Shown here piece by piece: positions 6,066 through 64,000 of a stretch of DNA of 64,000 nucleotides (positions are counted from its first letter, which is position 1; every line of letters starts with the position of its first letter). Made by a program: the position numbers and the translations under genes. The DNA comes from Cutibacterium granulosum (lineage in GTDB: Bacteria > Actinomycetota > Actinomycetes > Propionibacteriales > Propionibacteriaceae), in the NCBI RefSeq assembly GCF_900186975.1, contig NZ_LT906441.1:496001-560000 (forward strand), given 5' to 3'. The notes below the pieces were generated by a model, which was given only the letters and a program-made list of their open reading frames with translations, did no database searches and had not been told where the DNA came from.

Positions 6066-6409
6066 CGTCGGGAGAACACACGTAGACCATGCCTGCGACT
6101 GTCGCACGCACCAGAGGAACTTTTCGTTTCTGAGCAATGCAGAGGTGATGGCTGATCCCCGGGACTGGGTCGAGGGTGGCGGCGGTGCAAAGGCACCTGA
6201 CGCGTCTCTCACGGCTGATCGATGTGGAATCCACGCCGATTCGGCGCGGGCCACCACAGGAATTGGCCCGATCTGGGGTAGACTGTCTCCGTTAGTCCAT
6301 GAACTCGAAGGGGCATGTGTGCACGACGTCGAACGACCGTGCCGTCCCCATCGAGTCGCGGGAATCGGATCCATCCCGGACCCGATCACTCAACAGGAGC
6401 GCATTGTCC
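6066..6409 (+). other. manA-gyrB intergenic region (gyrB leader)
   Basis: No gene is supported here. The gyrB frame is open back to an ATG at 6299, but the extra 37 residues are low-complexity and that ATG has no ribosome site. A TAGACT at 6279-6284 is a possible -10 for gyrB, without a recognisable -35 at the right distance. Confidence 0.4.
6395..6399 (+). promoter_or_regulatory. Ribosome binding site fixing the gyrB start
   Basis: AGGAG lies 10 nt before the GTG at 6410. This favours that GTG over the in-frame ATG at 6299. Confidence 0.55.
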
Positions 6410-8473: not shown

Positions 8474-8534
8474 GGACGCCCGAACGTCTGGTATCGACTT
8501 CTTTCGAATGATTTTCGTGAATTGAGGATTCTGC

Positions 8535-11234: not shown

Positions 11235-11248
11235 TCCGGAAGGACGAC

Positions 11249-11845
11249 ATGAGCGATCAATCCACCTCGAGGCGTCAGTCGTACGACCCTGAGAAGACCC
11301 AGTGGACCGCTGGTGACGCCAAGCGGAACTTTGGCCCCAAGCGTGGCAGTGACTCCAGGCATGATGTTGCTCACGATGACACGCATGCCGGCACGCAGCG
11401 ATCGGTGCGTCGTGACGAGGCCTCGTCACGTCCCCGGGAGATGGCTTCCTCCGACTGGGAACATGTCTCCCGGCGTACCCGTAAGGCTCGTCTCCGGCTC
11501 ACCAGGGTTGACCCGTGGTCGGTGCTCAAGACGGCGCTGCTGTTCGGTGTGGCTGGCGCCATCATCCTCTTCATCGCTGTGTGGGTGGTGTGGGGTGTCA
11601 TCGGTGTGTCGGGTGCCTTCGAGTCGATCAACAAGGCCGTCAACGACTTGGTGAGCTCACCGACGTCCACCAAGAAGTTCCAGCTCTCCGACTACGTCAA
11701 CACCGGACGGGTCCTGGGGCTCACAGCGGTCATCGGCGTCATCGACGCCGTGCTCTTCACGGCTCTGTCAGTGGTCCTTGCCTTCCTGTACAACCTTGCC
11801 GCCCAGATCATGGGTGGGTTGGAACTCACCTTGGCCGAGGACTGA
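11249..11845 (+). CDS. DUF3566 membrane protein downstream of gyrA
   Basis: The function is unknown. DUF3566 proteins are small actinobacterial membrane proteins, usually encoded directly after gyrA as here, 14 nt downstream. The 198-residue product has a polar, charged N-terminal ~85 residues, probably cytoplasmic and disordered. The C-terminal domain has two hydrophobic segments (around residues 92-118 and 152-180) flanking a short soluble loop. AAGGACGAC before the ATG is a good ribosome site. Conserved position suggests co-transcription with gyrB-gyrA, but no role can be read from the sequence. Confidence 0.85.
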   Translation: MSDQSTSRRQSYDPEKTQWTAGDAKRNFGPKRGSDSRHDVAHDDTHAGTQRSVRRDEASSRPREMASSDWEHVSRRTRKARLRLTRVDPWSVLKTALLFGVAGAIILFIAVWVVWGVIGVSGAFESINKAVNDLVSSPTSTKKFQLSDYVNTGRVLGLTAVIGVIDAVLFTALSVVLAFLYNLAAQIMGGLELTLAED

Positions 11846-48237: not shown

Positions 48238-50199
48238 TTACACGCGCCTCTGGTTCGACCACATTTGCCACAGCTGGGCGAACCGGCCGTCACCGCAACG
48301 CAGCTGCTCGGGGGGCCCGACCTCAACGATCCGGCCACCATCCATCACCGCGACCTCGTCTGCCATCGCCACCTGGGACAAGCGGTGGGCCACGACCAGC
48401 GCAGTCCGGCCGGTCACGACCTCGGCGGCAGCCCGGTCCAGGACGGCCGCACCGGAGCTTCCCGCCTCCGCGGTGGCCTCATCGAGGATGATGATCGGAG
48501 GATCTGCCAGCAGGGCACGAGCCAGCGCGACCTGCTGGGCTCGCGCCGGTGACAATCGCGTCCCCAAGCGACCCACCACGGTGTCGAGACCCTCGGGAAG
48601 ATCATCGACCCAATCGGCACCGACCCTGGACAGGGCGTCCAGGACGGCCTCGCGCACCCGTTCGTCGGGCCAGTCCTCGGCCTGGACCGGCAGGCCCAGC
48701 GCCACGTCGTCGAGCAAGGTGCCCGAGAAGATGTGGATCTCCTGACTGACGAGCACCGTCCGGGCCAAGGCAGGCGTCATGGCGATCCTGCCCGACCGAG
48801 GCTCCAACAGACCGGCCACCAGAGCAGCCAGTGTGGACTTGCCCGCCCCCGACTCCCCGACGAGCACCGTCGTGTGACCGGCCGGAATCTCCAGATTCAC
48901 CCGGTGCAGGACGTCTGGACCGTTCTGATAACCGAAGCTCACCTGCTCCACCCGCACCGACGCCGACCCTCGCGAGTGCTGCTGCGGGAGAGGCGGCTCG
49001 ATCGGGCAACGATCACCTTCGCGGGCCTGTCCCAGCCTCAGCAGGGCTGGGTCGTGAGTGCCGTGATCGCGGTGGATCGATTCCCCTCGGGTCTCCTCCG
49101 GTGCTGCAGGCCAGCCATGTTCCGTCGTCTCGGACCCATCATGCCCTCGCCCTTCGGCCCCAGCATGAGCATGCGTCGTGGGCATGGCCTGTTCCGAGGC
49201 CGCAGGCTCCTCGGGACGCAGACAGATCACCCCGACCACCCGCTGCAGACACACCCAGGCGGCCTGCAGATTGTTGAGGAACATCAGCAGGAACCGCACC
49301 GGGGAGAACAATCGGAGCAGCACCAGGACCGCCGTCGCAGCCGCGCCGACGCTCACCCGATTCGTCATGACGAGCAGATACCCCGTCCAGGCGACGCCGA
49401 TGGTGGCCACTGCCTCCCCGACGAGAAGTCGCACCGCCAAGGTGTTGCCGAGGAATCGCCCACGCAGACTCCATCGCACGGCCTGCCACGACCCGTCGGC
49501 CACCGTGTGCGTGCGCAGGCCCTCCACGCCGAAGGCGCGCACCGCGTCCAGCCCGTGGATCGTCGACAGGATGTGTTGCGACTGGGTCGTCGAGGCTCGT
49601 CTCTCCGCCTGGTACACCGGCTGCGCAGTGCGCAGGAACTCCCGGATCGCCAACCCGTAGAGCACCCCAGCGAGCACCACGGGAATGAAGAAGCACGGAT
49701 GCAGGCTTGCCAGCGCCCCCACCGACACGATCACCATGATCATGGTGTTGACGAGCCGTGGCAGCGCCCCGTTGGCGGCATCCCGCACCGCAGTGACGTC
49801 GTCGGAGGCTCGCGAGACGAGGTCGGCGGTGCCGGCCCCCTCCACCCGCTGCTGGTCCAGCCCCAGCCCGACCGCAATCATCTCCTCCCGCAGGCGGGTG
49901 ACGATGGTCGTGAAGAAGGACGGCGTGAGCGCCTGGGCGGCGCCGTTGCAGATCCCCGAACCGACGACTGCAGCCCCCATCACCAAGGCCGGTGTGAGCA
50001 GCGCGGACGGCGATTGGCGGGTGCGCGCAGCATCGATGATCCACCCAGTGGCCATCGGCACCGCCAGATCGAGGATGGCTCCCAGCGCCACCACGACGAT
50101 GGCGGCGACGAAGTATCTGCGCACCCCCTTCGAGGTCCGGTGGACCTCTCGACGGACCTGCGCGGGGGTGGCCAGTGGCAACCAGTGCCGGGTGCTCAT
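48238..50199 (-). CDS. ABC exporter half (permease-ATPase) with intact Walker sites but degenerate signature
   Basis: The 653-residue protein is a type I ABC exporter half. Six membrane segments (residues ~28-320) are followed by a low-complexity His/Ser-rich linker and an ATPase domain. The ATPase has an intact Walker A (GESGAGKST, ~residue 453), a Q-loop region (TVLVSQEIHIFSGTL), an intact Walker B with catalytic Glu (PIIILDEATAE), and H-loop His (LVVAHRLSQ). The signature is degenerate: LSPARAQQV where LSGGQ is expected. Its ATG overlaps the partner's stop by 4 nt, so the two form a heterodimer. The substrate is unknown; its place in the CobN operon suggests export of a metal-related compound. 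Confidence 0.87.
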   Translation of the reverse strand: MSTRHWLPLATPAQVRREVHRTSKGVRRYFVAAIVVVALGAILDLAVPMATGWIIDAARTRQSPSALLTPALVMGAAVVGSGICNGAAQALTPSFFTTIVTRLREEMIAVGLGLDQQRVEGAGTADLVSRASDDVTAVRDAANGALPRLVNTMIMVIVSVGALASLHPCFFIPVVLAGVLYGLAIREFLRTAQPVYQAERRASTTQSQHILSTIHGLDAVRAFGVEGLRTHTVADGSWQAVRWSLRGRFLGNTLAVRLLVGEAVATIGVAWTGYLLVMTNRVSVGAAATAVLVLLRLFSPVRFLLMFLNNLQAAWVCLQRVVGVICLRPEEPAASEQAMPTTHAHAGAEGRGHDGSETTEHGWPAAPEETRGESIHRDHGTHDPALLRLGQAREGDRCPIEPPLPQQHSRGSASVRVEQVSFGYQNGPDVLHRVNLEIPAGHTTVLVGESGAGKSTLAALVAGLLEPRSGRIAMTPALARTVLVSQEIHIFSGTLLDDVALGLPVQAEDWPDERVREAVLDALSRVGADWVDDLPEGLDTVVGRLGTRLSPARAQQVALARALLADPPIIILDEATAEAGSSGAAVLDRAAAEVVTGRTALVVAHRLSQVAMADEVAVMDGGRIVEVGPPEQLRCGDGRFAQLWQMWSNQRRV

Positions 50200-52076
50200 G
50201 ACAACATCTCCCGGTAGCCGTCGTGACCCAACAGTTCCCGGTGCGGGGCACGAGCGACCAGGTGGCCGGCGTCGTCGAACAGCACCACCTCGTCCATGCG
50301 GTCCAGCAGGGCGGGAGAGGTCGTGGCGATGAGAGTGGTGCGCCCAGCTCGTAGCTCACCCATCCGTTCGGCGATGGCGGCGGTGGTGGCGGCGTCGATG
50401 CTCGTGGTGGGATCGATGAGAACCAGACCATCGGGGGCGTGGATGAGGGCGCGGGCCAGGGCCAGCCGCTGTCGCTGTCCGCCCGAGACGTGCCGACCGC
50501 CCTCCCCGACGCCGGTCTGCAGCCCATGCGGCAACTCGGCGATGGTGGTGTCCAGGGCAGCCGCCCGTACGACGGCGTCCAGCATGTCGTCCCTCGTACT
50601 GCCCAACATGATGTTGGCCTGGACGGTGTCGTCGAACAACTCCGGGGAGCGCGGTGCCACCAACACCAGGGCACGTTTGCGGGCCGGACCCAACTGGCTG
50701 GCCGGCACCCCGTTGAGGAGGGTGTGGGAACCATGCACGATGGCCTGTGCCAAGGCGTCACACACCTGTTGGGGGGCGACGATCCCCAGGTGCGCCCCGG
50801 GGGGCACGTCGAGCTGGAGACTCGGGTCCTCCACCTGGACGTGCAGGTGCACCGGGGTGCGCCCCGGGCGGTCGCCAGAACATGTGCAGTCAGGGTATGT
50901 GGGGTGGCTTCTCGGGCCCTCGCCGCCTTGACCACCCGGGCTCTCGTCGATCCTCGAGCTCCCGTCGGGACGGTCTGTGGAGGTGGGGTGCTCGTCGTCG
51001 GGATGGACCTGCCAGGCGACCGGGCTGTCGTGCAGCTCGCAGAACCGATCCCCGGAGGCATGGGCGTTGGCAAGCATCGTCGCGGTGTCGACACCGAGAG
51101 CTCGCAGCGGCGGCCCCAAGGTCTGGGCCAGCCCCACCACGGTGACGAGACTCCCGACGCTGATTCGCCCGTCCAGGGTGAGCCAGCCGGCCAACACCGT
51201 CAGGACGGTGATGAACACCCCCACCGAGGCGTTGACGGTGCCGGTGTAGACCCCCTTGACCCGACGGGTGCGCAGGGTGGCTGCCAAGCCCTCCCGGCTG
51301 GCGACCCGGAACCTCGCAGTGGCACGACGGGAGGCCGACAGCCCCTGGATGACGCGTAGCCCACTGGTGAGATCTGCCGCTGCCCCAGCCACGGCAGCCT
51401 CGGCCCGACGCTCACGACGAGTGCTGCGCTTGACCGGTGCCACCCCCTTGACCGACAGCAGGATGAGCAGCGGAATGGCGCACACCGTCGCCAGCACCAG
51501 CCAGCCGTTGATGAGTGCCATCGCGATGAGCGACCCGAACAGGGTGACGACATTGCCCGGTATGGACGTCAACGCGATGAAGGAACGGGAAACCGTCCGT
51601 ACGTCGGTGACGAGGACGGCCAGCAGGTCACCGGGAAGACGTGGTGGGCCCCCGATCCCCTCCGGGGCAATGATGCGTTCGAGGGCCTGCACCCGAAGGT
51701 CATGCTCACTCACCGCGGCCCCGACGTTGGTCTGCATCCGCGCCGTCTGGGCCGCCGCACGGACCACGTAGGCCAGCGCCACCAGGGCCAACCACCCGGC
51801 CAGGGCAGTCGCGTCACCAGCCACGACCCCGTCGTCGATGGCGCGTCCCAGGACCATCGGGACACCGATGTTCACCAGGCTGACGAGGGCCGATGCGATG
51901 GATCCGGGTCTCAGCCAGTGTCGTCCGTCATGGGCCATGCGCCGGATCAGGGCACGTCCGTCGTGGGTCTGGCTCGTGTCGATGAGGGGATCGTCGATGG
52001 CCGGTGGGGTCTGCCCGGGGATGCGGGGCAGCCACCGTACTCTCGGGTGCCAGGAACGGTGCGGGGAACGAATCAC
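50196..52076 (-). CDS. ABC exporter half (permease-ATPase) with intact signature but degenerate Walker sites
   Basis: The 626-residue partner subunit has six membrane segments (residues ~55-310) and an ATPase domain in which the P-loop is lost. The segment expected to be Walker A reads GIVAPQQVCDALAQA, with no Gly-Lys-Ser/Thr. Walker B lacks the catalytic Glu (LVLIDPTTSID) and the H-loop has no His (LIATTSPALL). The signature VSGGQRQRLALARAL is intact. Combined with the partner, one complete ATP site forms (partner Walker A with this signature). The other site is dead on both sides. The GTG start at 52076 overlaps the short upstream ORF. Confidence 0.85.
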   Translation of the reverse strand: MIRSPHRSWHPRVRWLPRIPGQTPPAIDDPLIDTSQTHDGRALIRRMAHDGRHWLRPGSIASALVSLVNIGVPMVLGRAIDDGVVAGDATALAGWLALVALAYVVRAAAQTARMQTNVGAAVSEHDLRVQALERIIAPEGIGGPPRLPGDLLAVLVTDVRTVSRSFIALTSIPGNVVTLFGSLIAMALINGWLVLATVCAIPLLILLSVKGVAPVKRSTRRERRAEAAVAGAAADLTSGLRVIQGLSASRRATARFRVASREGLAATLRTRRVKGVYTGTVNASVGVFITVLTVLAGWLTLDGRISVGSLVTVVGLAQTLGPPLRALGVDTATMLANAHASGDRFCELHDSPVAWQVHPDDEHPTSTDRPDGSSRIDESPGGQGGEGPRSHPTYPDCTCSGDRPGRTPVHLHVQVEDPSLQLDVPPGAHLGIVAPQQVCDALAQAIVHGSHTLLNGVPASQLGPARKRALVLVAPRSPELFDDTVQANIMLGSTRDDMLDAVVRAAALDTTIAELPHGLQTGVGEGGRHVSGGQRQRLALARALIHAPDGLVLIDPTTSIDAATTAAIAERMGELRAGRTTLIATTSPALLDRMDEVVLFDDAGHLVARAPHRELLGHDGYREMLS

Positions 52077-52177
52077 ACTGCTCCCGGACCATCGGATGAG
52101 CTGCCGACCGTACTCGCGTCACTGAAGCAGCCCACACTCCCCATCTGCTCGGGGTGGGTGCAGTGTCCGGGATCCAT
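52073..52177 (-). CDS. 34-codon ORF between chlI and the exporter genes
   Basis: I do not recognise this peptide. It starts MDPGHCTHPEQMG, has cysteines at positions 6 and 17, and a Ser/Gly-rich tail. Its TGA overlaps the GTG start of the downstream exporter gene (GTGTGATT), and its ATG is 17 nt after the chlI stop. That makes it a candidate coupled gene in an otherwise gapless operon. No strong Shine-Dalgarno precedes it. It may be a small metal-binding or precursor peptide, or simply an open spacer. Confidence 0.35.
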   Translation of the reverse strand: MDPGHCTHPEQMGSVGCFSDASTVGSSSDGPGAV

Positions 52178-52194
52178 GGTTTCCACGGGCCTCA

Positions 52195-53208
52195 TCAGCT
52201 CCTCTGCTCCCAGGGAGTTGTCGGATCCGGTGACCCCACGGACTCCAGGGGACGCCGTCTCATACGGTGCGGCAGCACCAGCCGGGCTGCCTGGGCGAGG
52301 TCGTCGGTGGAGATCTGGGTGCGTGCCTGCCAGGCCGCCAGGGTGCGTGCCGCCCGTACCATCATGATGTCGGCACGGTGACCGTCGACGTGGGCGTTGA
52401 GGCAGGTGTGCGACACCGTCATGAGGGTGTCGTCGTCAATGACCACCTGGTCGACGAGGCCACTGGCTCGTGTGATTCGTTCACTCATCTCGTGGCTGGC
52501 TTCCTCCCACGTACGTGTGAATCCTGCCGGGTCGTCCTCGAAGGCCAGCCGGCGCCGGATGACCTCGACACGCTGGTCGAGATCGTCCTCCCCGCCGACG
52601 GTGACACACAGTCCGAACCGGTCGAGCAGTTGGGGGCGCAGCTCGCCCTCCTCGGGATTCATGGTACCGACCAAGGTGAATCTCGCCGGATGGGTGACAC
52701 TGATTCCCTCCCGCTCGACGGTGTTGACGCCCATCGCGGCGGAGTCCAGCAGCAGGTCGACGACGTGATCATCGAGCAGGTTCACCTCGTCGACGTAGAG
52801 GATCGCCCGGTGCGCCGCAGCCAACAGACCGGGCTCGAAGCGACGTCGTCCCTCCCGCAGGGCCGTCTCCATGTCGAGGGTTCCGGTGACGCGGTCCTCG
52901 GTGGCTCCCACCGGCAGCTCGACCACGGGCACCCGGACGGTGCGCGGCTCGGGCATGGTCTCGGGCACTCCGAGCTCGGCAGCGTGGACCGGATACTCCT
53001 CGGGGGACAGGTGGTAGGCCCCGGGAACCTCCTGGTGCTCCGGGAGCAGGGCTGCCAGGCCACGTACCGCCGTGGACTTCGCGGTTCCTTTCTCGCCGCG
53101 GATGAGCACCCCGGACAGATCGGGGCTGATCGAGGCGAGGATGAGGGCCAGCTTCATCTCCTCCTGTCCGACGATGGCGCAGAAGGGGTAGACGGGGCGT
53201 TGTGCCAT
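52195..53208 (-). CDS. Magnesium-chelatase I-type AAA+ subunit (ChlI/BchI-like)
   Basis: ChlI-type subunits are AAA+ motors that work with a D-type subunit to drive metal insertion by an H/N-type subunit. The 337-residue protein has Walker A (RGEKGTAKST, Lys44), Walker B (AILYVDEVNLL), the ChlI insert around residues 85-110 (RVPVVELPVGATEDRVTGTL), sensor 1 (LVGTMNPEEGELRPQLLDRF), and the C-terminal lid. It starts 1 nt after the ChlD-like gene stop. No other chlorophyll gene is present, so the target is the CobN-like subunit encoded upstream in the operon. Confidence 0.9.
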   Translation of the reverse strand: MAQRPVYPFCAIVGQEEMKLALILASISPDLSGVLIRGEKGTAKSTAVRGLAALLPEHQEVPGAYHLSPEEYPVHAAELGVPETMPEPRTVRVPVVELPVGATEDRVTGTLDMETALREGRRRFEPGLLAAAHRAILYVDEVNLLDDHVVDLLLDSAAMGVNTVEREGISVTHPARFTLVGTMNPEEGELRPQLLDRFGLCVTVGGEDDLDQRVEVIRRRLAFEDDPAGFTRTWEEASHEMSERITRASGLVDQVVIDDDTLMTVSHTCLNAHVDGHRADIMMVRAARTLAAWQARTQISTDDLAQAARLVLPHRMRRRPLESVGSPDPTTPWEQRS

Positions 53209-53209
53209 G

Positions 53210-55258
53210 TCAGCGGTCCTTTCGGGGTTGGGTCGGGTCGAGTTGGGAGACGACGTTCACGAGGTCGTCGGCACGTAGGTCGTCGATGCGCAGGCAGGGT
53301 CCGCCCAGGGCCGTCGCAATGTCGTTGGCCCTGGACAGTTGGATGCCGCGGGGGTCCTCAGTATCGATGACGACCCAGCTGAGACGCCGGTCGGCGCCGA
53401 TCTCGTCCGCTACTTTGAGGGCTTCGTCGGTGGCGCGGGAGTTGGGTTTGCCGTCCAGGCCGACGTTGCCGCGTCCGTCGGTGACGAGCACCAACAGCGG
53501 ACGCAGACCGGGGTCCTTGAGCAGCAGGGGCCGGACGACCTCGCAGGCCGTTACGAGCCCAGCCGCCAGAGGAGTGCGACCGCCGACGGGAAGCTCGGCC
53601 AGGCCGCGTTGGGCCACCTCCACCGAGGAGGTCACCGGGACGAGCACCTCGGCCCGGTCGCGGCGGAAACCGATGAGGCAGACCCGGTCACGCTTGACGT
53701 AGGCGTCGAGCAGCAGGGAGAGGATAGCCCCCTTGGAGGCGGTCATCCGGCCCCGTGACCCCATCGACCCGGAGGCGTCGACGACGAGGATGACGCAGGA
53801 GGCCGACCGTCCGGTCCTCACCTTGGCCCGCCAGTCACCCGGCTCGACGTGGACCGCCATCGCGGGACGACTCGGGTCGGCTCGGCGTGACCTCTGGTGC
53901 ACCGCGGCGGCACGCAGGGTGGCGTCCAGGGCGAGATCGTCGGGACGGTCGGTGGGGCGGGACGAGACGTAACGGCCGCGACGACCCTCGCTACGGGTGC
54001 GCAGGCGTCGCCCCGAGGCCCGTCGGGAGAGGCGATCCTGCTCGGGTTCCAGGGGGCGCACGGCGAATGCCTCACCCAGGGCGGCCACCTGGTCGCTGCC
54101 GGGGGATGGGTTCTGGGTGTTGTCGCGATTGGCGTCACGCTGGCCCTCGGACTGTTGGTTCCCGTCCGCCAGGTCGTCACCGGGGTCGTTGTCCTCGGCA
54201 CTGCCGTGGTCATCGTGTGCGTGATCGCCCGGTGTGCCACCTGAGGTGGCAGCATTGTCGTTCCCGTGCAGATTTTCCACGTCTGGGTCGGGGCCCTGCT
54301 CCGAGTTCTGAGGTGGATCGGTCTCCTCGGTGGCGGAATCGGGATTGTGGGAGGGGTCCTCGGGCGGGTCCGGGTGGTTCTCGGGGTGCTGGTCTCGCGG
54401 TGGGGGAGGGTCGGCCGGCGTCTCGTCACGTCGGCGGTGTCGCAGCACCATCTCGCTGATCGCCAGCACGTCGTCCTCGGTGGCAGTCCTGCGGCCGGCC
54501 AGGGCGGCGTGGGCACGGGTGGCCTCTGCCATGACGACGTCGGCCCGGTGTCCGGCGACGTGGCTGTGTCGGCACAGCGAGCCGATGAGCTCGGTGACGG
54601 TGCGGTTCAGCGCGATCTGGTCGACGATGCGCTGTGCCCTGCCGATGGCCACGGCCTGACGTTCCTGGTCGTCCTGCCAACGGCGTGCGAACCCAGTCGG
54701 GTCGGCGTCGTGGTCGAGGCGACGCCGAATGATCTCTGCACGGGCCTCCGGGTCGGCCTCGCCGTGCACTTCGACGCACAGTCCGAATCGGTCGAGCAGC
54801 TGGGGTCGCAGCGCTCCCTCCTCCGGGTTCATCGTTCCGACCAGGACGAAACGGCTTGCCAGGGCAGCTTTCAGCCCCTCGCGCTCGACCCGGACGGTTC
54901 CGGCGCACGCGTCGATGACGAGGTCGACGAGGTAGTCGTCGAGGAGGTTGACCTCGTCGACGTAGAGCACCCCGCCGTCGACCTCGCTCAGCAGGCCCGG
55001 CTGGAGTACTGGCCGGCCCGACGTCAGGGTGGCCTCCAGGTCGAGTCCTCCGACGAGACGATCCTCGGTGGCGCCCAGGGCCAACGTCCTCATCACCTGA
55101 CTCGGCAGCAGCTCTGCCAGACCACGGACCACCGTCGACTTGGCCGTCCCCTTCTCCCCGCTGAGCAGCACCCCGCCAATGCGCGGGTTGACGGCGCACA
55201 GCAGTAGGGCGCTCCTGGCCTCGTCCTGCCCGACGATGGCGGTGAAAGGGTAGGTCAT
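53210..55258 (-). CDS. Magnesium-chelatase D-type subunit (ChlD/BchD-like, AAA+ plus VWA)
   Basis: The 682-residue protein has an N-terminal AAA+ domain, an acidic Pro-rich linker (about residues 285-415) and a C-terminal VWA domain with the MIDAS motif (DASGSMGSRG, residues ~491-500). Its AAA+ domain keeps Walker A (SGEKGTAKST, Lys40) and Walker B (VLYVDEVNLL), so it may hydrolyse ATP, unlike many plant ChlD proteins. It joins the I-type motor to the large CobN/H-type subunit. ATG 55258 overlaps the cobN stop, giving tight coupling. Confidence 0.9.
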   Translation of the reverse strand: MTYPFTAIVGQDEARSALLLCAVNPRIGGVLLSGEKGTAKSTVVRGLAELLPSQVMRTLALGATEDRLVGGLDLEATLTSGRPVLQPGLLSEVDGGVLYVDEVNLLDDYLVDLVIDACAGTVRVEREGLKAALASRFVLVGTMNPEEGALRPQLLDRFGLCVEVHGEADPEARAEIIRRRLDHDADPTGFARRWQDDQERQAVAIGRAQRIVDQIALNRTVTELIGSLCRHSHVAGHRADVVMAEATRAHAALAGRRTATEDDVLAISEMVLRHRRRDETPADPPPPRDQHPENHPDPPEDPSHNPDSATEETDPPQNSEQGPDPDVENLHGNDNAATSGGTPGDHAHDDHGSAEDNDPGDDLADGNQQSEGQRDANRDNTQNPSPGSDQVAALGEAFAVRPLEPEQDRLSRRASGRRLRTRSEGRRGRYVSSRPTDRPDDLALDATLRAAAVHQRSRRADPSRPAMAVHVEPGDWRAKVRTGRSASCVILVVDASGSMGSRGRMTASKGAILSLLLDAYVKRDRVCLIGFRRDRAEVLVPVTSSVEVAQRGLAELPVGGRTPLAAGLVTACEVVRPLLLKDPGLRPLLVLVTDGRGNVGLDGKPNSRATDEALKVADEIGADRRLSWVVIDTEDPRGIQLSRANDIATALGGPCLRIDDLRADDLVNVVSQLDPTQPRKDR

Positions 55259-58200: not shown

Positions 58201-59166
58201 GGCGCCGTCGAACTCCGGCTGCGCGGCCTGGGTGGCGACGTCCATCGATCCCATGCCCTGGGCGGTGGCCTGCCAGGCAGCTCGTGGGGCGTAGGAGGTG
58301 AGGGCGTGCAGCACACTCACCCCCAGATTCGGGTAGGCGTCGGCATTGGCGGGGACGCCAGCCGTCATGGACATCCCGTGGACGTCGACCAGGGTGTCGA
58401 CGACACATCGGCCCTCGTCGTCACGCAACAGATTCTCCAGAACCTGCGCCATGCCGGGGTTGCCGCGTCGCGCGTCGGGCAGCCGCAGGCAGAAGAACGG
58501 CACCGTGTTGGCGTCGAGCTCCTCGACGGCGGTGACGAGGGCCTCGATGTGGGCCGTGTTGTGCTCCAGCCAGTAGCTGCGTGGGAAGGTGATCCCGACG
58601 GTGGGACGGTCGGGGTTCAGGTGCTGCCGATACTCGGCGAGGCTGGTGAACAGGCCGTGACGCGGATGCCAGATTCCCTCGGTGGGGGCGGGGACGACGT
58701 CGGGGATCGGGGCCGAGCCTCCGTGCACCCGGTCGACGAGGACTCGCAGTGCTGACTCGACGTTGACCGGTCCGTTCATCCCCAGTAGTCCGACGAGGCC
58801 CTGCCAGGTGCCGTCGTCCAGACCACTGGCCCAGTCCTGGGCGGCCAGCAGCCCATCGTCGTCCCCGGAGGTCGGCTGGACGTGGATCCACGGCAGCGGC
58901 AGTCCGCGGGAGCGGCGGCTCTGCCAGGCCTCGACGAGGTCCGACCACGCCGGGCAGGAGGCCGTCCCACCGTGCAGGCTCAGCACGACGGCGTCACTGC
59001 GAGCGGCTGCTCGGGCGAAGGCGCGGGACAACTCCGGATCGAGGAGCTGGTCCTTGGTGCGGCCGAAGAGGGTGACGTTGATCCCGTCGGCACGCATCCG
59101 AGCCAGGGCCTGGCTGACGAGGGTGAGTTCCCCTCCGGTGGCTGAGAAGAAGCACAGGGTGGTCAT
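55258..59166 (-). CDS. cobN: CobN-type chelatase large subunit
   Basis: The 1302-residue protein is a CobN/BchH-family catalytic subunit. Cobaltochelatase CobN inserts cobalt into hydrogenobyrinic acid a,c-diamide. In Bacteroidetes, CobN-like proteins also occur in haem-use operons. The conserved core is visible around residues 545-605: HVGTHGSLEWLPGKGLGLSE, then KCYPELALDRMVNIYPYIIN and NPGEGTQAKRRS. The ATG at 59166 overlaps the radical SAM stop; the open frame to 59310 is a shadow. No further cobalamin-synthesis gene is in the window. The FecBCD-type importer upstream and the ChlI/ChlD genes downstream suggest either corrin or another tetrapyrrole as substrate. That choice is inference. 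Confidence 0.9.
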   Translation of the reverse strand: MTTLCFFSATGGELTLVSQALARMRADGINVTLFGRTKDQLLDPELSRAFARAAARSDAVVLSLHGGTASCPAWSDLVEAWQSRRSRGLPLPWIHVQPTSGDDDGLLAAQDWASGLDDGTWQGLVGLLGMNGPVNVESALRVLVDRVHGGSAPIPDVVPAPTEGIWHPRHGLFTSLAEYRQHLNPDRPTVGITFPRSYWLEHNTAHIEALVTAVEELDANTVPFFCLRLPDARRGNPGMAQVLENLLRDDEGRCVVDTLVDVHGMSMTAGVPANADAYPNLGVSVLHALTSYAPRAAWQATAQGMGSMDVATQAAQPEFDGALITKLLATREADEVDELTGAVVPRMVPVPGRAQAMAELALSWARLARTPTGQRKVAIVFHHHPPRNDRIGCASGLDTFESVRQLLIRMGEEGYDVPEQFETGDDIAQVLLSCLTCDQRWLTPEQMYERAEAHANLETSRPWYRGLPDSVRECMDRNWGPHPGTLFVHDDEFSFAGHLDGNVLLTIQPPRGTFEAVTDSAIHDPVLPPPHHYLAHYRWIRDVFKADAVIHVGTHGSLEWLPGKGLGLSEKCYPELALDRMVNIYPYIINNPGEGTQAKRRSAAALVDHLTPPMRQAGLYDSTAEIDRILREHAGAQSQSPQRARLVAEQVWDAVVEAGLDTDLGLTAGDVDSDPVELLDKVHHHLLELQDREISDGLHVLGQLVASQDDPATAEVEYVAQLTRQPNGSVPSLREAVLDAWGASLDEVSVKAGEPVTLTADLPDGLTGREIMEAAHRQCVDLLAPVVACHHGGCFDAERAHDLAAQLCREQLGAEHGDVVETLTWVATDLMPRLDATTDEIESIMTALDGGFVSPGPSGAPSRGNAHILPTGRNFFSLDPETMPTPTGWREGVKLAEQLLTGYAEAHPDQPWPRTVGVVVWGTANMRSGGADIAEILYLMGVRPVWESSGLVSGLQIIDPDELGRPRIDVSPRISGLFRDAFPNLVEMVDRAVRMVAALPEDGDDNLLRAHVEADVADMIARGIDVEQARRKATLRVFGCPPGGYGAGVEELIETKAWRDKADLGRAYIAASSHAYGEEVFGDVEPERFTAALSRMDVTVKNEDTREYDMLSCTDFYNYYGGLIAAATTVRGEAPISFVGDSSDPARIATRTTTQEARLILRSRILNPSWIEGLQRHGYKGAGDLSKVLDILIGWDATADVVDDGLWEKVARRYALDPAMQEWFHEVNPHALHNIVDKLLDAAQRNVWQADPGTVEELQDTYADIEGTIEEVSDDPHPSAAATRSASVTADGGLDLAGLGLA

Positions 59167-60431
59167 GACGCGATCTCCAGACGGGCAAGGGTGTCGTCGA
59201 TGAGGCAGGTGAGCGGGGTGTGACGGTGTTCCGGGTCGGCCAACGCATTCGCCTCCACCCGGGACGGGCAGTCGCCGGGGCACCGGTCCGCCAGGGCGCA
59301 GCGATGACACGGTCCACGCAACGTGTGGACATCGTGCGCGAAACGACGCCTCAAGCCATCCCAGTCGACGTCGTCGATGGTTCCGACCCGGGACGCCACG
59401 TCTCCGACGGCCTGGGAACAGGGGTAGACGCTCCCGTCGGGAGCCACCGCCAAGGATTCGCCGACCGCCGCATGACAGTACGGTCGGTTCGGCATTGCCA
59501 GTGGCAGAAGTGTTCGCCCGGACGGGTCGACCACGTCTGCGTGGCAGTTGACGTCGTTACGAACAGGATTGCCACGAGGGCTCGACGTGCCGGTGTGGCT
59601 CGAATCGTCGGCGGGTGTTGGTGTGCGGATGCAGCAGGGGTATGTGGATCGGATCCGGGACGTTTCCCCGGTGGCTGGTGGACGCGGTTGTCCTGGCCCG
59701 GGGCGAGTGGGACCGCTCGGCGCGTGACGCAGCGCTGCCCGAACGGTCTCCAGCTCACGCCAGCGCAACGGGTCGGCCCGCATCGCGTTGACCTGCGCGA
59801 GGCATCGGTGCAGGGCGGTGATCCCCGCGACGACGGCCTCCTCGGACGGAACCAGATCTTCCCGACCTGCAGCGCTGCCGATCGGCACCAGTGGGTCGAG
59901 TCCGAACCCGGTGACATTGGGAAGTCCGCCCAGGGTGACCGCCAGCTCACCCAGGTGGTCGACGTTGAGGGCCGAGAGCACCGTCGTCACTCGCACCGGG
60001 ACATCGGCTCCAGCCAGCTCAAGCAGGCTCCGGAAGGTCTGTGCTGCCGACCCACGCGCCTGCTCCTGCACCGGTGGCGGCCCGTCAAGACTCACCCCGA
60101 CACGCACCCGATGGCGTCTCAGCATGGCGACCATGTCGCCATCGAGGTGGGTGGCATTGGTCTGGATGCCGCAGGTGACCCGCCCGCCTCGAATGGCTGC
60201 GACCCGGCGGGCGACGTGCTCGACGAGGTCCGGCACCAGGGTCGGCTCCCCGCCGGCCAGCTGGACGTGGGCAGGCCGACCGGTGCCGCGCACGCCATCG
60301 GCGACGAGATCCAGTGCCGCGTCCGCCACCTCGATGCCCATCCGGCCGCCTCGGCGGTTTCGTCGGTAGCAGTACGGGCAGGCGAGGTCACAGGCGGCTG
60401 TGGGCCACAGCACGAGGTAGCGGACGGTCAT
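59163..60431 (-). CDS. Radical SAM protein with SPASM-like cysteine-rich C-terminus
   Basis: The 422-residue protein has the radical SAM motif CDLACPYC (Cys14, Cys18, Cys21), the AGGEPT segment and a SAM-binding region. The C-terminal part holds many cysteines: YPCCIR, CHADVV, PYCHAAVG, YPCSQAVG, then CHRCALADRCPGDCP. That is the SPASM pattern, which binds extra [4Fe-4S] clusters in maturases of peptides and proteins. Its place between the FecE and cobN genes is unusual. AAGGAG precedes ATG 60431, which overlaps the FecE stop. Substrate unknown: a peptide, the small ORF product, or a tetrapyrrole. Confidence 0.88.
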   Translation of the reverse strand: MTVRYLVLWPTAACDLACPYCYRRNRRGGRMGIEVADAALDLVADGVRGTGRPAHVQLAGGEPTLVPDLVEHVARRVAAIRGGRVTCGIQTNATHLDGDMVAMLRRHRVRVGVSLDGPPPVQEQARGSAAQTFRSLLELAGADVPVRVTTVLSALNVDHLGELAVTLGGLPNVTGFGLDPLVPIGSAAGREDLVPSEEAVVAGITALHRCLAQVNAMRADPLRWRELETVRAALRHAPSGPTRPGPGQPRPPATGETSRIRSTYPCCIRTPTPADDSSHTGTSSPRGNPVRNDVNCHADVVDPSGRTLLPLAMPNRPYCHAAVGESLAVAPDGSVYPCSQAVGDVASRVGTIDDVDWDGLRRRFAHDVHTLRGPCHRCALADRCPGDCPSRVEANALADPEHRHTPLTCLIDDTLARLEIAS

Positions 60432-61660
60432 GACCGACTCCTTGCGTCTGGTGGGTCTGCGTCCATTCGATGAGCCGTGGAACGTCCCGGGTCGGGGGCG
60501 GTGGCCGTCTCCTCTCCAGCGGCCCCCTGCCCGGCGATGTTGCACCCTCGCCCATCGTCAGCCGTGCCTCGTCCGAGCTGCGCCGACGTGCCTCCCCGGC
60601 CGCGGTGGGAAGCGCAACAGCCCTCCCGGTGCGAAACGAGAAGCTCGTACAGGTCGGCCAGGGTGGACAGCACCGTGCCGTCCACCTCCCAGCCGCCCGC
60701 AACGACGCGTACCGTGAGTGGGGTGGTGCCCTCGTCGGTACTGCCCGTACCGGCACTGGTCAGATCGGTGCCCGTGGTGGCGAGGGATTCCTCCACCACT
60801 CGATACCCAGCCCGTGCCAAGGTGTGCCGGGCCAGGTCGGCGTCCGTGCCTGCTCCGGCGACCACTGCCCTCGGGCGCCCCTCGTCGGACTGCCAGAAGG
60901 TGAGAGTGCGGAGATCGAAGGTGATCCCCTCGGCCCGGAAGGCCTCCTCCAGGCATCCGTCCCGGGCCAGGTCCTCCGGGGCCCCGATTGTCACGTCGGT
61001 GCCACGCCCAGCCACCCACAGGGTGTCGGCGTAGCGCATCACCGCCTCGATGTCATGGCTGCACACCACCACCGCGATGCTGCGTGCCGTGCACACCTCG
61101 CGCAGCATACCGAGCAGGGCGATCCTGCCCGGCGGGTCGAGGAAGGAGGTCGGCTCGTCGAGCAGCAGGATGGATGGCTCCTGGGCCAGGGCGCGGGCCA
61201 CCATGACCCGTTGACGCTGACCGTCGGACAGCTCCCCGATGAAGGCTTCGGCCAGATCGGCAGCGCCCACCGCCCGCAGCGACTCGTCGATGACCGCATG
61301 GTCATGAGGTCGCAGCCGCCCACCGATGCCCGAATGTGGATGACGCCCCAGCGAGACGACGTCGCGGCAGGTGAGCCGGGCCACCGACACCCGGTCGGTG
61401 AGGACGGTCGAGAGGGCCCGGGCGACCTGACGGCGCGACATCCGTGACGTCGGGGTGCCGTTGACCTGCACTTCGCCGCCGAGGCTCGGCTGCAGCCCGG
61501 CGACCGAGCGCAACAGGGTGGACTTTCCGGCACCATTGGGCCCCACGAGCCCAATCATCTGCCCGGCACCCACCGCGCCCGTCACCCCCGACAACACCGT
61601 GGTGACGTGACGCCCCGAACGGTACCCGACCGTCAGGTTCGACAGTGTGAGACCGGTCAT
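60428..61660 (-). CDS. FecE-type ABC importer ATPase with long C-terminal extension
   Basis: The first ~250 residues form a FecE/BtuD-type ATPase: Walker A (VGPNGAGKSTLLR), Q-loop region, signature LSDGQRQRVMVARAL, Walker B (SILLLDEPTSFLDPP) and H-loop (VVCSHDIEAV). The protein is 410 residues, about 150 longer than usual. The extra part includes a TFWQSDEGRPRAVV stretch, a possible small alpha/beta domain (VVAGAGTDADLARHTLARAG) and a Cys-containing tail (HREGCCASHRG). Its ATG overlaps the FecCD stop and the radical SAM ATG overlaps its stop. It should drive import of an iron complex, haem or corrinoid. Confidence 0.87.
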   Translation of the reverse strand: MTGLTLSNLTVGYRSGRHVTTVLSGVTGAVGAGQMIGLVGPNGAGKSTLLRSVAGLQPSLGGEVQVNGTPTSRMSRRQVARALSTVLTDRVSVARLTCRDVVSLGRHPHSGIGGRLRPHDHAVIDESLRAVGAADLAEAFIGELSDGQRQRVMVARALAQEPSILLLDEPTSFLDPPGRIALLGMLREVCTARSIAVVVCSHDIEAVMRYADTLWVAGRGTDVTIGAPEDLARDGCLEEAFRAEGITFDLRTLTFWQSDEGRPRAVVAGAGTDADLARHTLARAGYRVVEESLATTGTDLTSAGTGSTDEGTTPLTVRVVAGGWEVDGTVLSTLADLYELLVSHREGCCASHRGRGGTSAQLGRGTADDGRGCNIAGQGAAGEETATAPDPGRSTAHRMDADPPDARSRS

Positions 61661-62910
61661 GTCGCCTCCGCCTCCCGGTACCAGCGCACCAGGATGATCA
61701 TGACGACCGGCGCCCCGAACACCGCGTTGACGGCATTGACGGGCAGCACGTCGTCGCCGGGCAGCTGTGCCAGGATGTCGGCCATCAATGCCAGGGATCC
61801 GCCGGTGAGGATGCATCCGGGCAGCAGATGACGATGATCGGCCGTTCCCAGTACCCCACGCGTCAGATGTGGGATTGCGATGCCCAGGAAACTGATCGGC
61901 CCGCAGAACGCGGTGGCCGCCCCGGCGAGGATCGCGGTGCTCGCCACCAGCAGGGTGCGCACCACCTTGAGGTTCATTCCCATCGTCTGGGCGTAGCGTT
62001 CTCCCAACAACAAGGCGTTGAGCGGCTTGGCGAGCAGCAGACTGGCCAGGATCATGACGATCATGATCGGCACCATGGCTCGCAGGTTCTGCCACGTCAC
62101 GCCGTGGTAGCTGCCGAACTGCCAGCGGGTGTACTGGGCGATGAGCTCCGGGCTGGCCCGCGACAACAGCACGGTGACCCCTGACGAGACGAAGTACCCG
62201 ATCATGACGCCGAGCAGCAGCAGGATCGTCGAGGAGTGGATGAACCGGCCGGCCAGCATGACGATGAGCAGGACGACGGCTGCCCCCAGTGCCGCGGCGA
62301 CCATGACCAACAGGTCCGGCCCGATTCCCAGCCCGGAGGCGAAGCTGGCCGCCCCCGCCGATGCCGAGGTGGACAGCACCACCAGGGCAACGCCCAGACT
62401 GGCACCCGAGGAGATACCCAGCACGTATGGGTCGGCCAGTGGGTTGCGGAACAGGGTCTGCATCTCCAGCCCGGACACTCCCAGCGCCGCCCCGACGAGC
62501 AGGGCGGTGATGGTACGAGGCTCGCGGACGTCGCGGATGATCGTCATCGAGACTGGGTCGACGTCGGTGCCACCGGTGAGGATCGTCATGACGTCACCCA
62601 GCGGGATGTTCACCGATCCCAGCGCCAGGCCGGCCAGGGTGACGGCGAGGAGGATCGTTGCGAGGATCGTGAAACGCACCGGCAGTGGCAGCCCGCGTCG
62701 TCCCTGCGTCTGGCGGCTCCGCACATCCCGGTGATCCCGCACGTCCCGACCCCGCCCATCCTGACCTCGTACGTCCCGGCCCGGTGCCTCTCGGTTCTGT
62801 GGCGTCTCCTGGTGGCTGTTCCACCAGGTGCCCCTGATCCGCTCGCCGTGTGTCTCGTGACGTCCGTGCCTCCCGCGACGGCCCGGCACTTGATCCTGAG
62901 TCGCAGTCAC
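61657..62910 (-). CDS. FecCD/BtuC-type ABC importer permease
   Basis: The 417-residue permease has a ~75-residue Arg/Gly-rich N-terminal tail and about ten hydrophobic segments with the FecCD signature (VREPRTITALLVGAALGVSG, LADPYVLGISSGASLGV, FCGPISFLGIAIPHLTRG). These importers carry siderophores, haem or cobalamin across the membrane together with a FecB-type binding protein and FecE-type ATPase, both encoded beside it. ATG 62910 overlaps the FecB stop. The N-terminal tail is unusually long for the family. Confidence 0.9.
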   Translation of the reverse strand: MTATQDQVPGRRGRHGRHETHGERIRGTWWNSHQETPQNREAPGRDVRGQDGRGRDVRDHRDVRSRQTQGRRGLPLPVRFTILATILLAVTLAGLALGSVNIPLGDVMTILTGGTDVDPVSMTIIRDVREPRTITALLVGAALGVSGLEMQTLFRNPLADPYVLGISSGASLGVALVVLSTSASAGAASFASGLGIGPDLLVMVAAALGAAVVLLIVMLAGRFIHSSTILLLLGVMIGYFVSSGVTVLLSRASPELIAQYTRWQFGSYHGVTWQNLRAMVPIMIVMILASLLLAKPLNALLLGERYAQTMGMNLKVVRTLLVASTAILAGAATAFCGPISFLGIAIPHLTRGVLGTADHRHLLPGCILTGGSLALMADILAQLPGDDVLPVNAVNAVFGAPVVMIILVRWYREAEAT

Positions 62911-64000
62911 TTCGCGGTGGCCTTGCGGTAGAAGTAGAACTGGTGATCGGCATCCAGCTCAGGGTGCAGGATCGCCGTCAGATCCGCCAGGACGAGGTCG
63001 GGGCGCACGACCCCGGTCTGCCAGTAGTCGTTGCCGTGCTTCGGGTCGGCTCGCAGGGTGGCGTCCCAGACGTTGCCGTTGTCGAGGGCCTTGAGCGACT
63101 TCAGACGTGGGTCGGCCTTGAGGATCTCCGGGATGGACGACTTCTCCGGCCCGTCGATCCAGAAGTCGGCATCGTGGGCCTTCTTGATGATGGCCTCGGT
63201 GTCCAGCTTCCTGGATGCCACCCCGTGAAGGTCCTTGAACACGTACTCACCGCCTGCGTCGCGCAGGAATTGGATGGAGTAGTTCTCGTTGGGCTTGATG
63301 TACCAGACGCCCTTGTACTGCGATCCGTGGAGCACGGTCGGTCGTGTCGTCACCGTGGCGGCGCGTTTCGCGGTCGCATGGTACTTCTCGGCGATCTCGT
63401 CGTACTTCTGGTTCGCCGTCTTCTCGGCATTGACGAACAGCGAGTCGTACTTGATCCATTCGGCACGCCCCAGCGGGGTGCTCTCGAGGAAGTTCGGCTC
63501 GGCGACGACCGGGATGCCCATCTCCTTGATCTTGTCGATCTTGCTGGTGTTGTCGCTGCCACTGACGAGGTTGAAGATGAACAGGTCCGGGCGCAGCGCC
63601 GCCAGCTTCTCTGTGTTGATCTCGGTGGCGTTGTCACCTGCCGCGAAACTGGCGACCTTGTGGTCCTTGAGGGCCTGACGGGTGTTCGAATTCCCCACCC
63701 TGTCGACGTTGACCATGCCAGCCACGGAGTCCAGCTTTCCCAACATCTGGAACTTCATCGGCAGGGTCGTCGAACCCAGCGCCACCTTGGTGGTGGGGAT
63801 GGTGATCTTCTGCGCCCTGGCGAGGTCACCGTCCAGCTTCGGCTGCGGGGCGCCACACTGCACCAGGACGTACTGCACGGGTTTCTTCGCGGTGTTCGAC
63901 GGGTGCTTGAGCGTCACCACCTTGTACGACTTGTGGTACGACACGGTGATGTCGCGGGCGTCGCGGAAGGTGGCCTTGTCGGTGAAGTAGTCCTTCGAGG
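62907..64000 (-). CDS. FecB-type substrate-binding protein, 5'-truncated by the window edge
   Basis: At least 363 residues are visible; the frame stays open to the window end, so the signal peptide is not in view. The fold is the FecB/BtuF type. The visible start includes YFTDKATFRDARDITVSYHK. Further motifs include GSTTLPMKFQMLGKLDSVAG, TEKLAALRPDLFIFNL, VVAEPNFLESTPLGRAEWIK, and a C-terminal VVRPDLVLADLTAILHPE. The window edge cuts it before the signal peptide, so lipid attachment cannot be checked. The GTG at 63944 lies inside the domain and is not the start. It should capture the ligand of the importer. Confidence 0.88.
   Translation of the reverse strand, partial: SKDYFTDKATFRDARDITVSYHKSYKVVTLKHPSNTAKKPVQYVLVQCGAPQPKLDGDLARAQKITIPTTKVALGSTTLPMKFQMLGKLDSVAGMVNVDRVGNSNTRQALKDHKVASFAAGDNATEINTEKLAALRPDLFIFNLVSGSDNTSKIDKIKEMGIPVVAEPNFLESTPLGRAEWIKYDSLFVNAEKTANQKYDEIAEKYHATAKRAATVTTRPTVLHGSQYKGVWYIKPNENYSIQFLRDAGGEYVFKDLHGVASRKLDTEAIIKKAHDADFWIDGPEKSSIPEILKADPRLKSLKALDNGNVWDATLRADPKHGNDYWQTGVVRPDLVLADLTAILHPELDADHQFYFYRKATAK

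What the first reader, a model, noticed from the sequence alone, without database searches (positions are those of the whole stretch)
48238..64000. CobN-ChlD-ChlI chelatase embedded in a FecBCD import operon with a radical SAM/SPASM protein and an ABC exporter
Seen: on the minus strand, from right to left, FecB, FecCD, FecE, radical SAM/SPASM, CobN, ChlD, ChlI, a 34-codon ORF and two ABC exporter halves follow with no gaps above ~20 nt. Most junctions are ATGA-type overlaps, so this reads as one unit of at least 15.7 kb. Known: CobN with ChlI/ChlD-type partners inserts cobalt into corrins; FecBCD importers carry iron complexes, haem or cobalamin; SPASM radical SAM enzymes modify peptides or substrates; CobN-like proteins occur in haem-use operons of some anaerobes. 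Inference: the operon takes in a metal complex or tetrapyrrole, handles the metal with the chelatase (insertion or removal), modifies a substrate by radical chemistry, and exports a product. No other cobalamin gene is in the window, which argues against a plain corrin pathway. A metallophore made from a small peptide is a second option.
Basis: partly seen in the sequence, partly recalled or inferred. Interest (0 to 1): 0.85.

Follow-up and report, generated by a model that had tools for sequence, protein, structure and literature searches.

The report
B12-riboswitch operon with a CobN chelatase
A skin bacterium carries a long operon, headed by what looks like a vitamin-B12-sensing RNA, that seems to import a corrinoid (B12-type molecule) and work on its metal and ring with a chelatase and a radical enzyme; relatives in unrelated bacteria keep the same pair of enzymes, so it may be an uncharacterised B12-salvage route.

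Summary
The operon is real: FecB, FecCD, FecE, radical SAM/SPASM, CobN, ChlD, ChlI and two ABC half-exporters, minus strand, mostly overlapping, under purifying selection. The '34-codon ORF' is not conserved. The window cuts the operon: a second FecB and a predicted cobalamin riboswitch lie past its right edge; the riboswitch core is readable in 8 of 9 genomes of the genus (the ninth lacks CobN). The genome has a CbiX-containing corrin cluster, so this is not its only candidate cobalt chelatase. A radical SAM + CobN pair occurs in one other actinobacterial lineage and in 16 of 20 deltaproteobacterial neighbourhoods; 15 of the 20 hold a cobalamin riboswitch and 9 hold CbiZ, a corrinoid amidohydrolase. 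Its CobN lies in a clade apart from known cobaltochelatases. Closest known kind: Dehalobacter restrictus operon-2, induced 346-fold by corrinoid starvation (PMC4285132, passages). Best reading: corrinoid salvage/remodelling, the chelatase acting on an imported corrin; metal direction and radical step are unknown. The gene content was read rightly; the missing cobalamin link lies just outside the window. New variant of a known kind.

The parts
48238..50199 (-). ABC exporter half exp1 (ABC_membrane + ABC_tran; Walker A GESGAGKST and DEAT present, signature degenerate, read by eye)
   Evidence: Pfam; translation; matched in L034-L040
50196..52076 (-). ABC exporter half exp2 (no Walker A seen by eye, keeps SGGQ): layout of a heterodimeric exporter with one degenerate ATP site
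   Evidence: Pfam; translation
52073..52195 (-). 40-codon ORF, not conserved; probably not a gene
   Evidence: no Pfam hit; chlI and exp2 adjacent in 6 of 6 relatives
52195..53208 (-). ChlI-type AAA+ subunit (Walker A GEKGTAKST)
   Evidence: Pfam Mg_chelatase/AAA_lid_2; TIGR02442 478 bits, below its cut-off 779
53210..55258 (-). ChlD-type AAA+/VWA subunit (DASGSMG motif)
   Evidence: Pfam VWA_2/AAA_5; TIGR02442 737 bits, below cut-off 779
55258..59166 (-). CobN-type chelatase large subunit, 1302 aa
   Evidence: PF02514 1184 bits; TIGR02257 888 bits over cut-off 822; tree
59163..60431 (-). radical SAM/SPASM protein, 422 aa; CxxxCxxC plus CX2CX5CX3C, invariant in the 9 rows aligned
   Evidence: Pfam Radical_SAM (Pfam SPASM below cut-off); TIGR04085 SPASM over cut-off; alignment; model
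60428..61660 (-). FecE/BtuD-type ATPase with C-terminal extension
   Evidence: Pfam; NCBIfam best F420-0 ATPase 173 bits, then corrinoid ATPase PRK09536 170 bits, both below cut-off
61657..62910 (-). FecCD/BtuC-type permease
   Evidence: PF01032; best NCBIfam BtuC 188 bits, below cut-off 334
62907..64000 (-). FecB1 substrate-binding protein; continues past the window to about 64196. Beyond the window (extrapolated coordinates, minus strand): FecB2 64211-65515, predicted cobalamin riboswitch 65551-65686, and a neighbouring gene 65699-66718 with a weak AIRS match (CblS by recall only, not shown to be in the operon)
   Evidence: PF01497 for FecB1 and FecB2 (L002:13908-15197, L002:15212-16516); RF00174 31.7 bits, gathering 31.5, core readable in relatives; AIRS 19.8 bits below cut-off 24

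Best explanation
A corrinoid salvage/remodelling operon. Predicted from sequence: a cobalamin riboswitch heads the operon, whose genes encode a Btu/Fec-type importer with two binding proteins, a class I chelatase (CobN-ChlD-ChlI), a SPASM radical SAM enzyme and an ABC exporter pair. Inferred: when adenosylcobalamin is scarce the riboswitch lets the operon be made; the importer brings in a corrinoid or corrin; the radical SAM enzyme, whose gene overlaps cobN, changes the same substrate; the ATP-driven chelatase exchanges or inserts its metal, cobalt insertion into a metal-free or wrongly metalled corrin being my first choice (about 60:40 over cobalt removal); and the exporter carries out a by-product or a corrinoid. 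The product would feed the cell's own late cobalamin genes (CobQ-like, CobD, CobU, CobS).
For: Predicted cobalamin riboswitch at the head of the operon. Its core is readable in G000 and L034-L040; my core pattern matched 6 of these 8 and my B12-box pattern 7 of 8, the rest are near misses seen by eye. The same operon order with a near-threshold riboswitch (30.5 bits, gathering 31.5) just upstream of FecB in G185. Riboswitches of 116-119 bits about 0.5 kb or less upstream of FecB in L085 and L086 (2 of 4 loci), and one or more at gathering score in 13 of 16 further neighbourhoods. CbiZ (PF01955) beside the clusters of G185, L084 and L085, somewhere in 5 of 5 non-Cutibacterium genomes first found with the pair, and in 9 of 20 neighbourhoods. 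rSAM and CobN matches on one strand within 400 bp in 16 of 20. Most of these CobN form one clade, SH-aLRT 99. FecCD is nearest to BtuC, below cut-off. Late cobalamin genes present. Precedent: D. restrictus operon-2 with riboswitch, FepBCD/BtuCDE-like transporter, CbiZ, CobN and Mg-chelatase subunits, 346-fold induced by corrinoid starvation (PMC4285132, passages and section 13).
Against: No CbiZ in any of the 9 Cutibacterium genomes, so this version lacks the partner whose corrinoid role is established. The riboswitch is barely over Rfam's threshold in this genome and below it in the other seven (19.1-27.9 bits; one reaches 41.1 bits for RF01482, gathering 50). The binding-protein profile matches the haem binder IsdE (37.7 bits) better than BtuF-type proteins (about 21 bits), all weak. 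FecE's best NCBIfam match is an F420-0 ATPase, just ahead of the corrinoid one. The radical SAM is nearest to peptide/protein-modifying enzymes in profile and fold. Two CobN in the survey, one of them next to a radical SAM (L120), fall outside the clade. Nothing here shows the direction of metal transfer. The genome already has a CbiX-containing corrin cluster and, read by eye, a second Btu-like importer beside it, so the benefit is not obvious.
Confidence: 0.58

Rival explanations
1. A second cobaltochelatase for the cell's own corrin synthesis: the chelatase inserts cobalt into a de novo intermediate and merely sits in a B12-regulated operon.
For: TIGR02257 over cut-off; best solved relatives are CobN, 7c6o and 9uk9; CobN of the canonical clade in Propionibacteriaceae also has a cobalamin riboswitch just upstream (L047, L049). 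CbiD was not found in the genome, so its corrin route is not fully understood.
Against: Genome has CbiX; a tree with this CobN joined to canonical cobaltochelatases is rejected, p-AU 0.0003, group named after seeing the tree; importer and radical SAM context; G185 has a second, canonical-clade CobN elsewhere.
Confidence: 0.15
2. A haem/porphyrin system like HmuS: imports haem, removes iron, exports porphyrin.
For: IsdE is the top, weak, solved-structure hit of the binding-protein profile, ahead of BtuF (37.7 against about 21 bits), and FecB2 has a weak IsdE NCBIfam match; HmuS is a demonstrated CobN-family de-chelatase (PMC12583661, passages and section 23); the exporter would fit porphyrin release.
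Against: Predicted regulation by cobalamin in three lineages; CobN far from the Prevotella HmuS-type row (a long branch, and the AU test was not finished); HmuY and ExbB-type partners, seen in the Prevotella locus L139, are absent from the operon.
Confidence: 0.12
3. A modified peptide (RiPP) or metallophore system: the radical SAM matures a peptide that is exported by the ABC pair and re-imported with metal by FecBCD.
For: Radical SAM best matches are peptide maturases (PapB 98 bits, far below cut-off 340; sactipeptide and anSME-type enzymes by fold); an ABC exporter pair follows.
Against: No precursor gene seen: the only small ORF in the operon is not conserved and the other junctions leave no room; the 50 fold-search rows shown hold no AhbC/AhbD/NirJ structure, so that search cannot separate the two substrate classes; cobalamin riboswitch and CbiZ context. 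Small ORFs in the other lineages were not searched.
Confidence: 0.08

Closest known systems
Dehalobacter restrictus operon-2 (PMC4285132; passages and section 13 read)
   Same: Cobalamin riboswitch, FepBCD/BtuCDE-like importer, CobN and Mg-chelatase subunits in one operon; horizontal origin proposed by its authors; corrinoid starvation induces it. The authors count CbiZ and the cobaltochelatase as salvaging enzymes.
   Different: Operon-2 has two CbiZ genes; Cutibacterium has none. Whether operon-2 carries the radical SAM gene was not visible in the text. The ABC half-exporter pair was not matched in the other radical SAM-CobN loci examined (L088, L117-L132).
CobN-ChlI-ChlD cobaltochelatase of cobalamin synthesis (7c6o, TIGR02257)
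   Same: Subunit set, full-length homology, near-identical GTHGSLEWLPGK and NNPGEGTQAKRR stretches.
   Different: Separate clade, importer/radical SAM operon instead of a cob cluster, host already has CbiX.
HmuS haem de-chelatase (9d26; PMC12583661) and Bacteroides BtuS (PMC6460266)
   Same: CobN superfamily chelatase beside an uptake system; PMC6460266 section 17 reports an earlier prediction of metalloporphyrin salvage for BtuS.
   Different: No ChlI/ChlD in the 17-kb Prevotella locus L139, ExbB-type partner there, haem substrate, distant in the tree.
Second CobN-ChlD-ChlI-FecCDE clusters of Propionibacteriaceae (L041, L042, L048, L053)
   Same: Importer genes plus CobN-ChlD-ChlI.
   Different: About 26-31% CobN identity, no radical SAM match, no cobalamin riboswitch at gathering score (sub-threshold matches lie in L041 and L042 on the strand opposite to the cluster), other clade.

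Membership tests
Riboswitch-controlled CobN corrinoid-salvage operon (D. restrictus operon-2 type) | cobalamin riboswitch directly upstream | tested here: met
   (31.7 vs 31.5 bits, marginal); core readable in 8 of 8 loci with the operon or its remnant
Riboswitch-controlled CobN corrinoid-salvage operon (D. restrictus operon-2 type) | Fep/Btu-type ABC importer in the operon | tested here: met
Riboswitch-controlled CobN corrinoid-salvage operon (D. restrictus operon-2 type) | CobN with Mg-chelatase subunits | tested here: met
Riboswitch-controlled CobN corrinoid-salvage operon (D. restrictus operon-2 type) | CbiZ in the operon | tested here: not met
   0 of 9 Cutibacterium genomes; present beside the clusters of G185, L084, L085
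Riboswitch-controlled CobN corrinoid-salvage operon (D. restrictus operon-2 type) | induction by corrinoid starvation | not testable with these tools
   no expression data for this operon found in the papers held
CobN cobaltochelatase of cobalamin synthesis | over the TIGR02257 cut-off | tested here: met
   888 vs 822 bits
CobN cobaltochelatase of cobalamin synthesis | groups with known cobaltochelatases | tested here: not met
   (p-AU 0.0003; quick tree, group named after seeing it)
CobN cobaltochelatase of cobalamin synthesis | encoded with cob synthesis genes, no other cobalt chelatase | tested here: not met
   operon content; CbiX among the cbi genes
HmuS haem de-chelatase | groups with HmuS | tested here: inconclusive
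   far apart, but the HmuS-type row is a long branch and the AU test was not finished
HmuS haem de-chelatase | HmuY/ExbB-type partners | tested here: not met
   none in the operon; seen in L139, where the HmuS label is mine, from the neighbourhood
RiPP maturase system | SPASM radical SAM with auxiliary cysteines | tested here: met
RiPP maturase system | conserved precursor peptide next to it | tested here: inconclusive
   no conserved small ORF inside the Cutibacterium operon; elsewhere in these genomes and in the other lineages not searched

The most novel reading that the evidence does not exclude
The radical SAM-CobN pair is the core of an undescribed corrin-remodelling pathway, shared by horizontal transfer among anaerobes, in which an imported corrinoid has its ring or side chains changed by radical chemistry and its metal taken out and/or put back by a class I chelatase: the first enzymatic route for exchanging the metal of a finished corrinoid.
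Probability: 0.25. Interest if true: 0.85.

Novelty: new variant of a known kind. Interest (0 to 1): 0.6.

Why it matters
Finished corrinoids are thought to keep their cobalt (recalled). A chelatase placed, under predicted B12 control, behind a corrinoid-type importer and next to a radical SAM enzyme suggests that some bacteria salvage corrins that are metal-free, wrongly metalled or altered. It would give a function to part of the CobN superfamily whose groups the HmuS authors say mostly cannot be annotated reliably (PMC12583661 section 23), and it concerns Cutibacterium, whose cobamide regulation on skin is under study (PMC9600381 section 7).

Tried and rejected
Plain corrin synthesis, haem de-chelation and RiPP/metallophore readings: see rivals.

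The nitrogenase-like idea: the Syntrophaceae cluster L084 carries a NifH-NifD fusion and a NifK-like gene, which looked like a ring reductase. It is in only 1 of 21 non-Cutibacterium loci, and 0 of 9 Cutibacterium genomes have a match over the Pfam cut-off (6 have weak matches below it), so it is not part of the core.

Rows dropped and limits: CobN pieces under 700 aa were left out of the tree, and the CobN of L044, L045, L046 and L051 were not picked up by my ORF caller, so those four were not placed; L052 matches only the N-terminal third of CobN and was not placed either. The tree is a 'quick' tree with long branches and odd composition flagged. The AU test of this CobN with HmuS did not finish and was not repeated. 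Several of the 20 neighbourhoods end at contig edges, so absences in them are lower bounds. Gaps between matches are between BLAST ends, not gene ends. The FecB model was poor (pLDDT 56) and not searched; the radical SAM model (73.5) was searched in PDB with Foldseek only. Loci L061-L068 (other riboswitch places of the genome) were fetched but not analysed. The single genome-contig scan used two radical SAM peptide patterns, so Firmicutes such as Acetobacterium woodii were effectively not surveyed. The species of G000 is not named by any tool; Cutibacterium is inferred from named loci L080-L083, whose contig lengths equal those of G094, G111, G104 and G013. The phylum name Desulfobacterota for the deltaproteobacterial loci is recalled.

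PMC6049814 (B12 and acne transcriptome) is not held. Papers were seen as passages and single sections only: PMC12583661, PMC6460266, PMC9600381, PMC3848588, PMC4285132; all others as search listings. That the radical SAM-CobN pair is undescribed rests only on searches of the held library.

Full report
What is there. The finding's genes are present on the minus strand between 48238 and 64000 and carry the expected domains: two ABC half-exporters, ChlI, ChlD, CobN, radical SAM/SPASM, FecE, FecCD, FecB. With corrected starts the junctions are 4-nt or 1-nt overlaps or a 1-nt gap, apart from 118 nt between ChlI and the first exporter half that hold a 40-codon ORF. In 6 of 6 relatives with the operon those two genes touch and the ORF is absent. 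Nine genes compared with two species give Ka/Ks of 0.11-0.39.

What the window hides. The genome is one contig of 2.18 Mb and the window ends inside the operon. Beyond it lie a second FecB and, 35 nt upstream of that gene, a cobalamin riboswitch: RF00174, 31.7 bits against a gathering score of 31.5. The score is marginal and the seven other genus members score 19.1-27.9 at the same place, so I read the leaders. GCGAAGTCGGTG, TCCGAC, CGCGCAACGGT and the B12 box can be read in G000 and L034-L040; my two patterns matched 6 and 7 of these 8, the misses being single-base departures. A similar leader stands before the G185 operon. One leader (L036) reaches 41.1 bits for the AdoCbl family RF01482, gathering 50. 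The gene beyond the riboswitch, a weak AIRS match, is matched in all seven other genus neighbourhoods; that it is CblS is recall.

The host. An own-genome search found 8 tetrapyrrole methylase domains, four of them in one place, next to a pair of CbiX domains. Pfam confirms CobD, a CobB/CobQ-like protein, a TP_methylase-CbiG fusion, CbiX, CbiC, CbiJ, CobU and CobS in the same region of about 50 kb. CbiK was found in 0 of 9 genomes of the genus and CbiD not in this genome, so completeness of the pathway is not shown. PMC9600381 names C. acnes and C. granulosum among species carrying most or all cobamide synthesis markers (passages). CobN occurs once in this genome.

Distribution in the genus and family. 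Of 9 genomes of the genus, 7 have the operon; G069 keeps the riboswitch, a 95-residue CobN piece and nearly full-length matches to both exporter halves; G053 has no CobN match. FecB2 is missing in 2 of the 7, and in C. modestum fecB1 and fecE are each split. In the family, 43 of 147 genomes have a CobN match at E <= 1e-30. Of the 10 non-genus neighbourhoods read (L044-L053), none has a radical SAM match; seven have a CobN without any FecCD match, two (L048, L053) have a distant CobN linked to FecCDE, and L052 matches only the N-terminal third of CobN. Three of the seven were placed in the tree, all among the canonical cobaltochelatases.

Relatives elsewhere. Of 396 genomes of the phylum, 62 have a CobN match at E <= 1e-150; apart from the query itself only G185 exceeds 44% identity, with 55%. 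Its CobN lies inside fecB-fecCD-fecE-rSAM-cobN-chlD-chlI with a divergent CbiZ and a 30.5-bit riboswitch just upstream. In 30 genomes of its order only G185 has the radical SAM at E <= 1e-60, which suggests horizontal transfer. A scan of public genomes with radical SAM patterns gave 8 loci: 4 Cutibacterium and 4 deltaproteobacterial MAGs. In 297 genomes of the phylum of the Syntrophaceae MAG, 17 have the radical SAM at E <= 1e-60. I read 20 deltaproteobacterial neighbourhoods (L084-L087 and L117-L132; several end at contig edges). CobN lies on the same strand within 400 bp of the radical SAM match in 16, 1.5 kb away in 1 and is not seen in 3; CbiZ is in 9, FecCD in 10, a carbon-nitrogen hydrolase in 9, ChlI in 6. 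Cobalamin riboswitches at gathering score are in 15 of 20 (none in L084, L087, L118, L119, L123). In L129 the riboswitch lies downstream of the radical SAM gene; in L124, L128 and L131 it lies directly before cobN.

Tree. Of 49 CobN-family rows, Cutibacterium, G185 and 15 deltaproteobacterial rows form one group (23 rows, SH-aLRT 99), apart from 11 canonical cobaltochelatases (100), haloarchaeal CobN, BchH and the HmuS-type row. Two deltaproteobacterial rows, L120 (next to its radical SAM) and a second CobN in L132, fall outside. Forcing the Cutibacterium/G185 rows together with the canonical ones costs 108 log units, p-AU 0.0003; I named that group after seeing the tree.

How it may work. A cobalamin riboswitch would normally mean expression when adenosylcobalamin is low. 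The importer is of the Btu/Fec kind: FecCD is nearest to BtuC, FecE to an F420-0 ATPase and then a corrinoid ATPase, all below cut-off; the binding-protein profile matches IsdE (37.7 bits) better than BtuF (about 21 bits), all weakly, which keeps haem in play. The CbiZ association in other lineages points to corrinoids as cargo. The D. restrictus operon-2 of similar make-up rose 346-fold in RNA and 46-fold in protein on corrinoid starvation; its authors count CbiZ and the cobaltochelatase as salvaging enzymes and, in the passages I saw, give no mechanism for the chelatase (PMC4285132). I therefore read the Cutibacterium operon as salvage or remodelling of an imported corrin, with metal insertion more likely than removal because the switch asks for more cobalamin. 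The radical SAM enzyme has the SPASM cysteines and is nearest to peptide or protein maturases; what it acts on is unknown. In the exporter pair one half has lost Walker A while keeping the signature, and the other has the reverse (read by eye), the usual layout of a heterodimeric exporter with one working site. In G069 the exporter stays behind the riboswitch after the rest is lost, which hints that it has a B12-linked use of its own.

Verdict. It resembles a known kind (riboswitch-controlled CobN salvage operon) but lacks CbiZ and has the radical SAM gene and half-exporters, so I call it a new variant. The radical SAM-CobN pair did not turn up in the literature searches listed under tried and rejected.

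Noticed in passing
L040 (G069) 6366-11301: In one Cutibacterium genome the operon is reduced to riboswitch, a 95-residue CobN piece and nearly full-length matches to the two exporter halves.
   Followed up: partly
L041, L042, L043, L048, L053: Some Propionibacteriaceae carry another CobN-ChlD-ChlI-FecCDE cluster (about 26-31% CobN identity), without radical SAM or a cobalamin riboswitch at gathering score (L043 not scanned for the latter); in L042 the CobN is in two pieces and in L043 only a remnant is matched.
   Followed up: partly
L084:2813-6338: NifH-NifD fusion and NifK-like gene inside a Syntrophaceae radical SAM-CobN-CbiZ cluster; NifH half best matches CfbC, below cut-off. Found in 1 of 21 loci.
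   Followed up: partly
window 52195-59166: Synonymous divergence from C. avidum is 0.30-0.36 in cobN-chlD-chlI but 0.49-0.92 in the six other operon genes compared, suggesting recombination of this segment between the two species.
   Followed up: no
G000 genome-wide: 14 cobalamin riboswitch matches (E <= 1) in a 2.18 Mb genome; their downstream genes were mostly not read.
   Followed up: no
L133, L141: Haloarchaeal plasmids carry cobN among cbi genes, in L133 with CbiX-domain genes nearby, another case of both chelatase types together.
   Followed up: no
L003:8175-8278: TPP riboswitch about 6.5 kb beyond the cobalamin riboswitch, opposite strand.
   Followed up: no
L081 fecB1 and fecE: C. modestum has fecB1 and fecE each split into two open frames, so its importer may be inactive.
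   Followed up: no
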